Under the pieces are notes generated by a model. It had not been told where the DNA came from. It worked only from the letters and a program-made list of their open reading frames with translations, and searched no databases. The position numbers and the translations under genes are program-made. A stretch of DNA of 64,000 bases from Halogeometricum limi (GTDB taxonomy: Archaea > Halobacteriota > Halobacteria > Halobacteriales > Haloferacaceae). Of the stretch, positions 2,330-10,877 are shown piece by piece. Where the stretch lies: NCBI RefSeq assembly GCF_900115785.1, contig NZ_FOYS01000002.1:248001-312000 (forward strand), in the 5' to 3' direction. Every line of letters starts with the position of its first letter. Positions within the stretch are counted from its first letter, which is position 1.

Positions 2330-4114
2330 CTATCGGAACCGGCGTCTGAACCGCGCGCCGAGTGCGACGACGACCACCGCGACGAGCGCTGTCGGGTGGA
2401 ACACGGGACTCGTCGCGCGAATGCCCGAGATTTCGGTCGTCTGCCGTGCGGTCCCCGTCGCACCGGACCGTCGGGTGGTCGTCGGGGGTTCCGTCGCCGC
2501 GCCAGTAGCGGTCGGCGTCTCCGTCTCGCCGACGGACGCGCGGACGACGACGGTACCCGCCAGCACGTCGTTTATCTTCACCTCGTACTCGCCGGAGTCG
2601 GAGATTTGGTGGTCGAACAGCGCCTGCCGTTGTCCGCCCGCGGCGATGGTGAGTTCGCGCTGTTCGACCACGTCGCCGTTGAGGAGGAGTTGCGCGACGA
2701 ACTCGCCGTCCGCGCCGCCGTCGTTCGCAATCTGGACGTGCGCGCGCAGGTCCTCGCCGACGGTAATCTCCGCGACGTCGACGTCGACCGTCTCCACCGT
2801 GAACTTCGGCCGCTTGGCCCCGGCGGCGAACTCGGAGAGGCCGGGCGAGACGGCGCGGAACTCGTACGCCGTCGGCGTCTCACCGACGACTTCGGTCGGG
2901 AGTTCCGTCCACGACCCGTTCTCGTAGCGGTACAGCGCCACTTCGTCGGGTTCGACGTCGTCAGTTTCCATCCGCGTCTTCGACACCCGGAAGTCGATGT
3001 CGACGCTCCCGTTCAGTTCGTCGTTCGAGATGGAGTGGTCGACGCGAATCTGTTTCATCGACTCGGACCCGTCGTCGGTCTCGAAGTCGGGCGACCCCTC
3101 GATTCGGTCGCCGGTCGTCACGTTCATCGTGAACGACCCGTTCCGCGTCGGCGTCAGTTCCATCCCGGTGAGGGTGACGTCGTCCTCGTCGGAGGCGTTC
3201 GTCATCGACTCGTTGTCGACCGATTCGTTCACCGTGTCCGTCTCGTTCGCGCTTCCGTCGGAGACGTTCCCCGGACGGTCCGACGACGAGTTCTTCGGCG
3301 TCCCGTTCGCCGCCGCTTTCGGCGGCGTGAGGTTGATTCGCGTCCGCTCGTTCGCGTCGACGGAACTGACGGTGGCGTCGACTATCTTCACGTCGTCGTC
3401 ATCGCCGTCTGCTTCCGCTTCGCTGTCGTCGTCGCCGTCTCTCTTCTCGGTACCGCTCGCGTTCTCGGAGGCGTTAGCCGTCCGAAGAGAGACTGATACC
3501 GGAGCGTTGGTTACGTTCCGCCCGTCGATTCCCCGAGAGACGTCGTCGTCTTCGTCGTCTTGGTCGTTCTGACCGGGAGCGTCACCGGATTTCCCCGGTG
3601 CGTCGGAGTCGTCGGAGTCGTCACCGTCGGAGTCGTCTTGGTCGTTCTGACCGGGAGCGTCACCGGATTTCCCCGGTGCGTCGGAGTCGTCGGAGTCGTC
3701 TTGGTCGTTCTGGCCGGGAGCGTCACCGAATTTCCCCGGTGCGTCGGAGTCGTCGGAATCTCCCGTCACAGTCGAGATGACGTCCGACACCGTGCTTGTG
3801 CCCGGTACACTGGTCCCGAGGGTACTACTCTCGGGGGTCTCTGTCACGGTCCCGTTATCGTCGCCGTCAGAATCGTCGTCGCCATCAGAATCGTCGTCGT
3901 CAGCGTCGCCGGCGCCGAACAGTCCGCTCCATCCGCTCGAAGCGAGCGGCGAGCGTTCGTACTCGTTGCCCGTCTCACAGGCATCGTCGCCCGTCTGACA
4001 GCCTGTTACCGCCCCCACGGTTCCCCCACCGAGAACACTGAACGGAACGACGAGGAGGAGTACGACCACGAGAGTCACACTCGCCGTCTCCGCTCTGTTC
4101 GTACGCCCTCTCAT
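2330..4114 (-). CDS. Secreted PGF-pre-PGF domain surface protein with Asp-rich repeats
   Basis: A 594-residue exported protein. Residues about 10-35 form a signal sequence. An extremely acidic low-complexity region follows, containing three repeats of the form DAPGKSGDAPGQNDQ. From about residue 290 comes a PGF-pre-PGF type domain (KQIRVDHSISND, VALYRYENGSW, AVSPGLSEFA), then a CARDB-like beta domain (RAHVQIANDGG, QLLLNGDVVE) and a Thr-rich stalk leading to a C-terminal membrane helix with an Arg-rich tail. Numerous N-x-S/T sites suggest N-glycosylation. It is probably anchored in the membrane or S-layer; its function is unknown. It is divergent from osmC, with a 16-bp palindrome in its promoter region. 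Confidence 0.85.
   Translation of the reverse strand: MRGRTNRAETASVTLVVVLLLVVPFSVLGGGTVGAVTGCQTGDDACETGNEYERSPLASSGWSGLFGAGDADDDDSDGDDDSDGDDNGTVTETPESSTLGTSVPGTSTVSDVISTVTGDSDDSDAPGKFGDAPGQNDQDDSDDSDAPGKSGDAPGQNDQDDSDGDDSDDSDAPGKSGDAPGQNDQDDEDDDVSRGIDGRNVTNAPVSVSLRTANASENASGTEKRDGDDDSEAEADGDDDDVKIVDATVSSVDANERTRINLTPPKAAANGTPKNSSSDRPGNVSDGSANETDTVNESVDNESMTNASDEDDVTLTGMELTPTRNGSFTMNVTTGDRIEGSPDFETDDGSESMKQIRVDHSISNDELNGSVDIDFRVSKTRMETDDVEPDEVALYRYENGSWTELPTEVVGETPTAYEFRAVSPGLSEFAAGAKRPKFTVETVDVDVAEITVGEDLRAHVQIANDGGADGEFVAQLLLNGDVVEQRELTIAAGGQRQALFDHQISDSGEYEVKINDVLAGTVVVRASVGETETPTATGAATEPPTTTRRSGATGTARQTTEISGIRATSPVFHPTALVAVVVVALGARFRRRFR
3558..3761 (-). repeat. In-frame tandem repeats encoding DAPGxxGDAPGQNDQ units
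   Basis: Three near-identical units begin at about 3558, 3636 and 3699 on the plus strand. The first two are 78 and 63 bp long, both multiples of three, so copy-number change would keep the frame. They encode 26- and 21-residue acidic Pro/Gly blocks in the surface protein. Confidence 0.85.
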
Positions 4115-8430: not shown

Positions 8431-8955
8431 ATGAATTCTGATACGAGAGCAGTGAGTCCCGTCGTCGCGACTATCTTGATGGTCGCGGTCGTCGTCGTGC
8501 TCACAGGGGCGACGGGCGGGTACCTGTTTCAGTTGACCGACAGCGTCGACGACGCACCCAACACCGCGTTCTCGGCCGAGTACGATACCTCGACGCGCGA
8601 CAACGTCGGAACGTCGCCGGACGGCCACTACCTCAACGTCACGCACACCGCCGGCGACACGCTCCAGACGGGCGCGCTCAACATCTCGGTGACGGGGGCG
8701 TGGAGCAGAGACACGGACGACCCGAACGACAACGAGCCAGCGGTGTACGTCGGCCCGAACCCGTTCGCGTCGCAGGCGGGGAGCGACTTCACTGCCGCAG
8801 AGACGGTCTCCATCAACAGCAGTAGTTTCAGAGAGGCCGGCGGCGCGGCCATCGACAACAGCGACTATCTGGACCTGCAGGATGCGACCGTCCGAATCGT
8901 CTGGCAGTCGTCTTCGACGGACGACTCCGTGACGCTCTGGACGTGGGAGTTCTAG
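8431..8955 (+). CDS. Archaeal type IV pilin-like protein
   Basis: A 174-residue protein with the archaeal pilin N-terminus: MNSDTR, then AVSPVVATILMVAVVVVLTG, a helix preceded by a short basic leader cut by prepilin peptidase, probably just before AVSP. The rest is a polar, Asn/Ser-rich beta-type head ending SVTLWTWEF. It would assemble in or through the membrane as a pilus subunit or minor pilin. No pilus assembly ATPase or PilC is nearby, so it is an orphan pilin, common in haloarchaea. A T-rich promoter lies upstream. Confidence 0.9.
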   Translation: MNSDTRAVSPVVATILMVAVVVVLTGATGGYLFQLTDSVDDAPNTAFSAEYDTSTRDNVGTSPDGHYLNVTHTAGDTLQTGALNISVTGAWSRDTDDPNDNEPAVYVGPNPFASQAGSDFTAAETVSINSSSFREAGGAAIDNSDYLDLQDATVRIVWQSSSTDDSVTLWTWEF

Positions 8956-9102
8956 GTACTCTCGCGGCGCTTCCGACCCGGTTCGGGGTCGCCTCTTCGC
9001 TCTCGTCTTTCCTCCGTGGTCGGCGCGACGACTATCTCTGACTGTCGTTCTCGGCCGGCGTCGACGATACGCCCAGAACCTCCCGGGAGGCGCGTCTCGC
9101 GG

Positions 9103-9423
9103 GCGACAGAGCGCTCGCTGGGTGGATGAGTTCAGAGTAGAAGTGGGGTCGGAGGGATTTGAACCTCGGTCGCTCCGCTCCCTGGTTCAAATCCTCCTCG
9201 GAAACGTCACCTGAACTCACGCCGTACGCGAGCGACAGAGCGCTCGCTGGGTGGGTGAGTTCAGAGTAGAAGTGGGGTCGGAGGGATTTGAACCTCGGTC
9301 GCTACGCTCCTTGGTTCCAATCCTCCTCGGAAACGTCACCTGAACTCACGCCGTACGCGAGCGACGGAGCGCTCGCTGGGTGGGTGAGTTCAGAGTAGAA
9401 GTGGGGTCGGAGGGATTTGAACC
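9103..9423 (-). repeat. 129-bp tandem repeats carrying the tRNA-Trp 3' end
   Basis: Units begin at 9103, 9232 and 9361, with a period of 129 bp; the third copy merges into the real tRNA-Trp gene at about 9402-9423. Each unit holds the 3' terminal T-arm/acceptor segment (minus-strand GGTTCAAATCCCTCCGACCC), a conserved flank, and an inverted GGATTTGAACC...GGTTCAAATCC pair, perfect in the first unit. A second hairpin, CGAGCG-N6-CGCTCG, lies at the unit junction. Copies differ by a few bases. The array could be stacked attachment sites left by integration at the tRNA. Apparent proteins read through it contain translated tRNA and are rejected. Confidence 0.85.
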
Positions 9424-9580
9424 CCCGATCGACTGATATCTCCGGTGTAGCGCCTCGGAACTCCAGAGGGTCGTCAACACGACCGATGATCAGTCGGTCG
9501 CTCGGTATATCAGTCTGGAGTTTCGTCCCGGGCGCGTTGCCTCTGGAGTCAGTCGCCATGCCGGGCTTGGCCACGACCCC
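9402..9580 (-). tRNA. trnW: tRNA-Trp (CCA anticodon) with 105-nt intron
   Basis: Reading the minus strand, acceptor GGGGTCG pairs with CGACCCC, the D arm is GCC/GGC, the anticodon stem ACTGA pairs with TCAGT around loop CTCCAGA, and the T arm GGGGG-TTCAAAT-CCCTC is intact, with discriminator A at 9402. The intron lies between positions 37 and 38 (9542 down to 9438). CCA is not encoded. A TATA-like TCCTTTAAGT at 9610-9619 lies upstream. The exon pattern and intron location match the well-known haloarchaeal tRNA-Trp. Confidence 0.96.
9438..9542 (-). ncRNA. tRNA-Trp intron with box C/D methylation guides
   Basis: The intron has two antisense segments. At 9515-9506 GACTGATATA pairs with the 3' exon junction, and the A five bases before a CCGA D-like box faces U39. 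At 9468-9459 CTCTGGAGTT pairs with the anticodon loop, and the G five bases before another CCGA faces C34. A C'-like TGACGA is at 9476-9471. A hairpin GACCGA-N7-TCGGTC sits between them. This agrees with the established Haloferax role: the intron guides 2'-O-methylation of C34 and U39 in the pre-tRNA. The D boxes here read CCGA rather than CTGA. Confidence 0.85.
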
Positions 9581-9609
9581 CACTTGTGCGTCTCTTCGTA
9601 TGGCGATTC

Positions 9610-9619
9610 GACTTAAAGG
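9610..9619 (-). promoter_or_regulatory. TATA box of tRNA-Trp
   Basis: TCCTTTAAGT on the minus strand, 30-39 bases upstream of the tRNA 5' end, in an AT-rich pocket between two GC-rich genes. Confidence 0.5.
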
Positions 9620-9637
9620 AATTTCGATTGACGGTCG

Positions 9638-9862
9638 TCAGTCGCGGTCGGTCTCACTCCAGTCGCAGTCTTGGCACTTGTAGGCCGTCACGAACTCCGT
9701 CACGCTCGGCATGTAGCCCACCGAGATGACGTTGCCGCCGCAGTCGGGGCAGTCTCGGTCGGCGTCCTCTATCGCCTCGGCTTCGAGCGGTCGCTCTCCC
9801 TCGACGAGTTCGGCGAGTCGTTCGGGCGTCACCATCCGTCCTTGGACGACGCGGTTGCTCAT
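9638..9862 (-). CDS. Small zinc-ribbon protein, DUF5795-like
   Basis: A 74-residue protein (MSNRVVQGRMVTPERLAELVEGE) with a C-terminal zinc ribbon formed by CPDCGG and CQDCDW. It resembles the haloarchaeal family I remember as DUF5795. The ribbon probably binds Zn and could contact nucleic acid or protein; the function is unknown. It lies downstream of the DUF5794-like membrane gene on the same strand with a 73-bp spacer, and the pair may be co-transcribed. Confidence 0.8.
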   Translation of the reverse strand: MSNRVVQGRMVTPERLAELVEGERPLEAEAIEDADRDCPDCGGNVISVGYMPSVTEFVTAYKCQDCDWSETDRD

Positions 9863-9935
9863 ACTGGCGCAGACGACCGGCGGACTGGTAACTCCTTCGT
9901 GTACGGCGTTCTCCGAAAAGCTGGTCGAACCCGGC

Positions 9936-10877
9936 TCAGAGCCACGGCGCGCGCGAGTCGTTCTCGCTCGGGTAGCCGTAGCCGGGGTCTTCCGCCGCCG
10001 TGGAGGGTTCGTCCTCCAGCGCGGAGTCGTCGTCCGTCTCGCCGCGTTCGCCGCCGTCGGCGACGGCCGCGGCCGTCGGAACGCCGTCGGGCGTCTCCGG
10101 CCCGTCCGCGCTGTCGTCGTCCGCGACGTCTTCGACGGACGGGTCTCCGGCGGAGGGGTCGTACGCGAACAACGCCGTCACGCCGAGGACGCCCAGTGCG
10201 ATGGGACGCTCCGTCGGGAGGACGCCGAGCACGTCGATGGCGAGCATCCCGAGAGCGACGGCGCTCCCGAAGCGGAAGCGGTCGATGTCGACCGCACCGC
10301 GCAGGCGCGGCGCGGACAGAGCGACGGCGAGGGCGAACGCGACGCCCGTCCCGGCCGCGGCGACGGCGTGCAGGATGGTCGTCGGGTCGGGCGTCAGTAT
10401 CAACTGCGCGCCGGAGGGTTCGAAGCTCGCGACCAGTCCGAGACCGATAATGACGCTCGGCGAGGGGAGCTTCTCACCGACCTCCGAGGACGCCGTCTTC
10501 GCCGCGACGGCGAGGATGACGAGTCCGGCGAACCGGTGGAACACCTCGAAGTTCAGCACCGTCTTGATGGTCTGTGCGAACGCCGCTTCCAACCCCGCGA
10601 CGGGTAACAGCACCGCGGCGAGAAGCAGGATGGACGTGACCTGTTCGCGGCGCGTCCCCTCCATCTCGGCGAGGATGACCGCGACGGTGGCTGAGCCACC
10701 GAAGATGAGCAGTCCGGTCTGGAGGATGCCGACGGGACCGCTCAGCGCACCCGCGATGACGAGTGCGGGGAAGATACCGTCGACGAGCGGAAGCGCCATG
10801 ACCGTCGCGAGCAGGCGCGTCGCGCCGCCCACCTGTTGCTCTAAGCGAAGCGCGACCGGATGCTGTGAGACACTCAT
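9936..10877 (-). CDS. Multispanning membrane protein, DUF5794-like
   Basis: A 313-residue integral membrane protein with about seven or eight hydrophobic helices between residues 20 and 235, starting TRLLATVMALPLVDGIFPALVIAG, and an acidic disordered cytosolic tail of about 75 residues. It resembles the haloarchaeal family I know as DUF5794; transport or enzymatic residues are not identifiable. Its neighbour on the same strand is the DUF5795-like ribbon protein. Confidence 0.8.
   Translation of the reverse strand: MSVSQHPVALRLEQQVGGATRLLATVMALPLVDGIFPALVIAGALSGPVGILQTGLLIFGGSATVAVILAEMEGTRREQVTSILLLAAVLLPVAGLEAAFAQTIKTVLNFEVFHRFAGLVILAVAAKTASSEVGEKLPSPSVIIGLGLVASFEPSGAQLILTPDPTTILHAVAAAGTGVAFALAVALSAPRLRGAVDIDRFRFGSAVALGMLAIDVLGVLPTERPIALGVLGVTALFAYDPSAGDPSVEDVADDDSADGPETPDGVPTAAAVADGGERGETDDDSALEDEPSTAAEDPGYGYPSENDSRAPWL

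What the first reader, a model, noticed from the sequence alone, without database searches (positions are those of the whole stretch)
9103..9423. Three stacked 129-bp units carrying the tRNA-Trp 3' end
Two extra copies of the T-arm/acceptor end of tRNA-Trp lie in tandem directly downstream of the gene, with identical flanks and internal inverted repeats. Archaeal integrases target tRNA 3' ends and leave duplicated att sites, but here no element separates the copies. This may be the scar of repeated integration/excision, or a terminator-like or tRNA-derived array.
Basis: partly seen in the sequence, partly recalled or inferred. Interest (0 to 1): 0.55.

Follow-up and report, generated by a model that had tools for sequence, protein, structure and literature searches.

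The report
Self-copied tRNA ends in tandem
Salt-loving archaea often carry, right behind a tRNA gene, a tandem array of copies of that same gene's last twenty or so letters separated by palindromes; whole units come and go, and the copied stretch is also where a mobile element was seen to insert.

Summary
In detail: 129-bp units (2.5 copies) repeat the last 22 nt of tRNA-Trp behind the gene. It is not an isolated scar. In this Halogeometricum genome 23 of 48 tRNA genes have a copy of their own 3' end within 320 nt (1 of 960 shuffled flanks), and a T-arm palindrome pattern hits 76 of 81 sampled genomes of its order against 16 of 311 elsewhere in the phylum (reversed control 0 and 8). A unit is: own tRNA end, palindromic spacer, inverted T-arm, a loop often of shared consensus, next tRNA end. 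Two relatives differ by exactly one unit, broken at the repeated tRNA end. In a sister species a 4.2-kb integrase-bearing stretch sits between a tRNA and its array, so the same block serves as an att core; but stretches of four related virus records lacked the palindrome. Array stems show no excess of G-U over A-C (24:35; 27:41 without one conserved T-G position, 95:36 in a smaller set with it), tRNA stems do (44:1, 46:6): no sign of selected RNA helices. Best reading: a DNA-level recombination array anchored on tRNA 3' ends; its first origin is unknown. Nine literature searches found no description.

The parts
9402..9580 (-). intron-containing tRNA-Trp gene; its 3' block 9423-9402 is the repeated sequence F
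   Evidence: Rfam RF00005, 45.6 bits; coordinates checked; isotype by reading
9341..9392 (-). palindromic spacer A, unit 1 (TGAACTCAC ... GTGAGTTCA)
   Evidence: inverted repeat I2
9313..9326 (-). inverted T-arm R, unit 1 (GGAGGATTGGAACC, one difference from unit 2)
9295..9312 (-). loop B, unit 1 (AAGGAGCGTAGCGACCGA)
9273..9294 (-). first extra copy of the tRNA 3' end (F')
9212..9263 (-). palindromic spacer A, unit 2
   Evidence: inverted repeat I1
9184..9197 (-). inverted T-arm R, unit 2 (GGAGGATTTGAACC)
   Evidence: pattern hit G000:C6:257158-257193:-
9166..9183 (-). loop B, unit 2 (AGGGAGCGGAGCGACCGA)
9144..9165 (-). second extra copy of the tRNA 3' end (F'')
9098..9143 (-). truncated third trailer and spacer, where homology to the unit ends
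   Evidence: TRF boundary 9098

Best explanation
The array is a DNA-level recombination array anchored on the 3' end of the tRNA gene, one member of a family spread over the order Halobacteriales. Each unit is a copy of the host tRNA's own last 20-22 nt, then a palindromic spacer, an inverted T-arm, and a loop (often of a shared consensus) that leads into the next copy. SHOWN: the anatomy; that the copy matches its own tRNA; that two relatives differ by exactly one unit with the break at the repeated tRNA end; that in a sister species an integrase-bearing stretch lies between a tRNA and its array, joined at the same block. INFERRED: that units are gained and lost by recombination between the repeated tRNA ends (by the host's short-repeat recombination or by a tyrosine recombinase); that the duplication in the window is a recent local amplification of one older unit; that the array has no required role and acts at most as a cluster of spare att cores. 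NOT EXPLAINED: how the first unit arises behind a new tRNA gene.
For: Own-tRNA copy: the acceptor part of the unit copy is on average 0.90 identical to its own tRNA (median 1.0; at least 0.8 in 90 of 111) against 0.44 for other isotypes (at least 0.8 in 11 of 10,752); identity is 0.74 at the discriminator, 0.58 at the next base, then 0.28-0.52. Location: 114 of 126 strict-consensus hits in named genomes have a same-strand tRNA upstream within 1,500 nt, 92 of them at 23-80 nt. Frequency, not chosen by pattern: 23 of 48 tRNA genes here. Whole-unit difference: L339 and L357 differ by one unit, break at the tRNA end, 281 of 309 other aligned positions identical; in L349 against L359 one of two gaps is of this kind. 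Near-identical array: four extra copies behind a tRNA-Leu, period 87, 98% matches. Att core: in G003 4.2 kb with a PF00589 integrase (4.5e-11) separate tRNA-Arg(ccg) from its array; in G004 they touch; shared block CAAATCCCGTCGGGTCCG. L200: integrase (1.5e-11) next to a 13-nt remnant and the array, tRNA not on the stretch held. DNA rather than RNA: G-T to A-C 24:35 in spacers and 27:41 in R-B-F' stems without one conserved position, against 44:1 and 46:6 in tRNA stems. Dispensable: at tRNA-Ser(GGA) 16 of 30 genomes, chosen by tRNA similarity alone, have a copy by the script's criterion.
Against: Part of the loop and the inverted T-arm recur across genera, more than a neutral array seems to need. 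One position of the R-F' stem is T-G in 88 of 108 units; with it a set of 92 unique R-B-F' stretches gives 95:36 in favour of G-T. Halorubrum tRNA-Ser(TGA) spacers gave 10:5. The second gap between L349 and L359 breaks inside loop B, not in the tRNA end. An acceptor-only 13-mer with up to 3 mismatches is found behind its own tRNA in 26 of 48 but also behind other isotypes in 226 of 2,140. No recombination was observed and no recombinase is assigned. Loops are more alike between tRNAs of one genome than of different genomes (0.771 against 0.709; 4 of 1000 permutations), a hint of spread that this account does not explain; relatedness was not controlled.
Confidence: 0.5

Rival explanations
1. 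Units are cargo-less miniature integrative elements: each was inserted at the T-loop/3' end of a tRNA by a tyrosine integrase acting in trans, and the tRNA-end copies are attL and attR.
For: The copied block is the joint of an integrase-bearing stretch in the genus; exact whole-unit difference L339/L357; 27 tRNA species among 114 hits.
Against: A pattern scan of four virus stretches with related integrases (SNJ2, HHPV4, HRPV9, LSV-48N; L372-L375) found no inverted T-arm; attP positions were not established and the record ends were not scanned. Two of nine integrase genes of the genome are near tRNA genes. The copy matches the local tRNA, so an incoming element would have to be specific for each tRNA.
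Confidence: 0.2
2. The array is transcribed with the tRNA and its hairpins act as RNA, for example in 3'-end formation, tRNA 3' processing or as a decoy for processing enzymes.
For: Orientation to the tRNA is nearly fixed (one reversed loop, L156); the one T-loop position left free by the search pattern on both sides pairs in 94% of 111 units; a T-G position kept in 88 of 108; T at the first base after the tRNA in 91 of 111.
Against: No excess of G-U over A-C outside that position while tRNA stems show a strong one (exception 10:5 in one subset); only tRNA matches in Rfam; no clear copy behind 14 of 30 orthologous genes.
Confidence: 0.15
3. Nothing but local slippage or unequal crossing-over: a chance palindrome behind the tRNA was duplicated.
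For: The two complete units in the window agree at 125 of 129 positions, so the last step here is very likely such an event.
Against: Copies of the same block with inverted T-arms recur behind 27 tRNA species in many genera, and own-end copies stand behind 23 of 48 tRNA genes here.
Confidence: 0.1

Closest known systems
Duplicated att sites at tRNA 3' ends (tyrosine-integrase elements; review PMC8371274, passages seen)
   Same: Direct repeat of a tRNA 3' end that begins in the T-loop; the same block is the joint of an integrase-bearing stretch in the genus
   Different: No element between the copies; palindromic spacer and inverted T-arm; behind 23 of 48 tRNA genes; no such palindrome in the four virus stretches scanned
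Palindromic intergenic repeats (REP/BIME and MITE types; recalled, not tested)
   Same: Short, non-coding, dispersed, hairpin-forming, variable copy number
   Different: Position behind tRNA genes; part of each unit is a copy of the local gene rather than of the family
Repeat-mediated deletion in Haloquadratum walsbyi (PMC3119063, passages seen)
   Same: Deletions between short direct repeats, partial tRNA duplications among them
   Different: There single deletion events; here standing arrays with a recurring architecture
Integron cassette arrays (recalled, not tested)
   Same: Tandem units separated by imperfect palindromes beside an anchor site
   Different: No gene cargo seen, no integrase assigned, the anchor is a tRNA gene

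Membership tests
attL/attR scar of an integrative element | direct repeat of the tRNA 3' end | tested here: met
attL/attR scar of an integrative element | an element or integrase remnant between the copies | tested here: not met
   the 107-nt intervals in the window hold only spacer, R and B
attL/attR scar of an integrative element | the block is used by an integrase element | tested here: met
   for another tRNA of the genus: G003 against G004, tRNA-Arg(ccg); not shown for tRNA-Trp
attL/attR scar of an integrative element | flanking arms resemble attP arms of related elements | tested here: inconclusive
   pattern scan of L372-L375 found none, but attP positions were not established and two record ends were not scanned
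known RNA family (Rfam 15) | match to a family other than tRNA | tested here: not met
   window 8500-10500 at E up to 1; 15 loci at the gathering score
RNA selected for structure on the tRNA strand | G-U tolerated more than A-C in its helices | tested here: not met
   24:35 and 27:41 (95:36 in a 92-sequence set if the conserved T-G position is counted); one subset 10:5; controls 44:1 and 46:6
MITE | terminal inverted repeats, dispersal not tied to one kind of gene | tested here: inconclusive
   T-arm inverted repeats bound loop B, but 28 of 32 regions and 114 of 126 hits have a tRNA close by
integron cassette array | cargo genes between recombination sites | tested here: not met
   of 114 hits behind a tRNA, 92 begin at 23-80 nt and 113 within 300 nt
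integron cassette array | dedicated integrase | not tested
   only PF00589 positions in the own genome were looked at
any of these | transcription or in vivo recombination of the unit | not testable with these tools
   needs RNA-seq or excision assays

The most novel reading that the evidence does not exclude
Haloarchaeal tRNA genes anchor a cargo-less, integron-like cassette system: the R-B-F' palindrome is the recombining hairpin site, the tRNA T-arm is the primary site, and a recombinase of the host or of its viruses exchanges spacer cassettes among tRNA loci, so that tRNA genes keep renewable spare landing sites for mobile DNA.
Probability: 0.1. Interest if true: 0.85.

Novelty: new variant of a known kind. 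Interest (0 to 1): 0.6.

Why it matters
tRNA 3' ends are favoured entry points for mobile DNA in archaea (passages of PMC8371274). If about half of a haloarchaeon's tRNA genes carry extra, turning-over copies of that entry point, a tRNA-end repeat alone is no proof of an element in these genomes, and partial tRNAs behind tRNA genes get another explanation. The arrays are also a natural, variable system for measuring recombination at tRNA genes.

Tried and rejected
Viral collection: the strict consensus had 0 matches in viral contigs; the loose pattern gave 45 loci, of which by eye one looks haloarchaeal (L291, behind tRNA-Glu) and the rest look like chance or bacterial palindromes. Virus attP arms gave no support, with the limits stated. 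The 12 strict hits without a near tRNA: six lie at the end of the stretch held (L100, L113, L161, L170 twice, L199); L114 lies 3.1 kb behind its tRNA-Val, with no integrase domain among the five reading frames scanned; L151 and L171 follow partial tRNAs, by eye; L200 lies beside an integrase; L141 is unexplained; L156 has the loop reversed relative to its tRNA. An outgroup genome with six loose-pattern hits (G307) holds mostly one AT-rich repeat of another kind. Two Halogeometricum regions (L067, L071) have no tRNA; I take them for chance matches. Ascertainment: the strict pattern itself fixes most T-arm letters of R and F' and the loop ends, so pairing and conservation there are largely by construction; only one T-loop position, the T/C of the T-G position and everything outside are free. 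With the loose pattern, which leaves the loop free, 18 of 35 places in 32 regions of the genus show the loop start AGRGAGYG. Where F and F' differ, R follows the tRNA at 16 positions and the copy at 2, as expected from constraint on the tRNA. Dropped rows: three edge rows; units more than 110 nt from the tRNA and hairpins under a score of 12. The 30 Halorubrum loci are the best of 52 genomes by similarity to a query that has a unit, so their unit numbers are biased upwards. The 23 of 48 includes the upstream tRNA-Asp, whose twin gene follows within 320 nt. Counts for one search were made by eye from its table. Literature: the nine searches gave listings in which I saw no description; passages of two papers were read; the library holds open-licence papers only.

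Full report
Observation. The array is real: period 129, 2.5 copies at 9098-9423, behind an intron-containing tRNA gene on the minus strand at 9580-9402. Read on the tRNA strand, a unit is the tRNA end F, a palindromic spacer A, an inverted T-arm R, a loop B and the next tRNA end F'. The two complete units agree at 125 of 129 positions, so the duplication in the window is probably recent.

Not a single case. A loose pattern (inverted T-arm, gap of 14-44, T-arm) hits all five genomes of the genus, with no hit for the reversed pattern. Of 32 regions fetched around these hits, ARAGORN found a tRNA in 28; of the four others, L078 is the intron-bearing tRNA-Trp, L082 has its tRNA 4.2 kb away, and L067 and L071 have none. 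The tRNAs are of Leu, Val, Arg, Asp, Ser, Met, Gly, Glu and Pro type, besides Trp. In the window's genome, without choice by pattern, 23 of 48 tRNA genes carry a copy of their own last 20 nt within 320 nt (at most five mismatches), against 1 of 960 shuffled flanks; a weaker acceptor-only test gave 26 of 48 for own and 226 of 2,140 for other isotypes. One of the 23, the upstream tRNA-Asp, has its twin gene just behind it. The genus is Halogeometricum by an equal contig length (G002:C27 and a Halogeometricum pallidum contig, both 213,867).

Breadth. In the family 88 of 99 genomes match the loose pattern. In a draw of 392 genomes from the phylum 92 match: by my count 76 of 81 in the order and 16 of 311 outside; the reversed control hits 0 and 8.

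What is copied. Over 111 units the copy matches its own tRNA through the T-loop and the acceptor strand; identity is 0.74 at the discriminator, 0.58 at the next base and then 0.28-0.52. Beyond the T-loop R resembles its own tRNA end (58 of 111 above the 95th percentile for other tRNAs). Pairing inside the T-loop is mostly fixed by the search pattern; the one position free on both sides pairs in 94%. The loop is often but not always of one type: 18 of 35 places in the genus, with other loops at the same tRNA in other genera.

Dynamics. Between tRNA-Ser(TGA) and a conserved downstream gene (superoxide dismutase by my reading, not searched) in 30 loci of 52 Halorubrum-group genomes the interval holds no copy in 8, one in 18 and two in 4. 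L339 and L357 differ by one unit, with the break at the tRNA end and 281 of 309 other aligned positions identical. L349 and L359 differ by one such unit and by a second gap that breaks inside loop B. At tRNA-Ser(GGA), 16 of 30 genomes show a copy by the script's criterion, the others decayed traces or none. A further genome has four extra copies, period 87, behind tRNA-Leu. So whole units come and go, at least sometimes exactly at the repeated tRNA end.

Link with integrases. In G003, tRNA-Arg(ccg) and its array are separated by 4.2 kb with a tyrosine-integrase gene next to the array, 45% identical to that of SNJ2 over 99% of the query. In G004 the array touches the tRNA. The stretch most simply entered at the tRNA end, and the shared block starts in the T-loop. 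L200 has an integrase gene next to a 13-nt remnant of the tRNA end and an array; its tRNA is not on the stretch held. But of nine integrase genes in the window's genome two lie within about 1 kb of a tRNA gene, and a pattern scan of four virus stretches with related integrases found no array-like arm, with the limits that attP positions were not established. I therefore take the array to be resident, and the elements to be visitors that use the same door.

DNA or RNA. If the hairpins were selected as RNA on the tRNA strand, G-U pairs should outnumber A-C mismatches. They do in tRNA stems (44:1 and 46:6; 140 unique tRNAs). They do not in spacers (24:35; 86 hairpins) nor in R-B-F' stems (27:41; 108 unique) once one position that is T-G in 88 of 108 is left out; with it, a 92-sequence set gives 95:36. 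A small Halorubrum set of spacers gave 10:5. In Rfam only tRNA matches.

Conclusion. The finding is a local amplification within a widespread haloarchaeal architecture for which nine searches found no description: tandem, palindrome-separated copies of a tRNA gene's own 3' end. Recombination at that end explains its turnover best; its first origin and any benefit remain open.

Noticed in passing
L305 1104-1162, L309, L310, L316, L318, L331, L335 (viral contigs): Near-perfect palindromes of what looks like a bacterial tRNA 3' part in GC-rich viral contigs, T-arm at both ends, loop of variable length, with shared flanks in several contigs.
   Followed up: partly
L156 4116-4171: Loop B lies in reverse orientation relative to its tRNA-Val: a possible inversion between oppositely oriented T-arm copies, seen once among the 126 strict hits.
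   Followed up: no
G000:C3:57195-62373: Two integrase genes close to tRNA-Gly(ccc), a partial tRNA match and tRNA-Thr: a probable integrative element in the window's genome.
   Followed up: no
window 3554-3757: Near-perfect 78- and 63-bp tandem repeats inside a 594-aa reading frame (2330-4114, minus).
   Followed up: no
L379 446-993: Behind tRNA-Ser(tga) two kinds of loop alternate in a 242-bp higher-order repeat, 2.3 copies.
   Followed up: no
L291 13744-13908: A viral contig with a haloarchaeal-looking tRNA-Glu and an array unit behind it, near the contig end.
   Followed up: no
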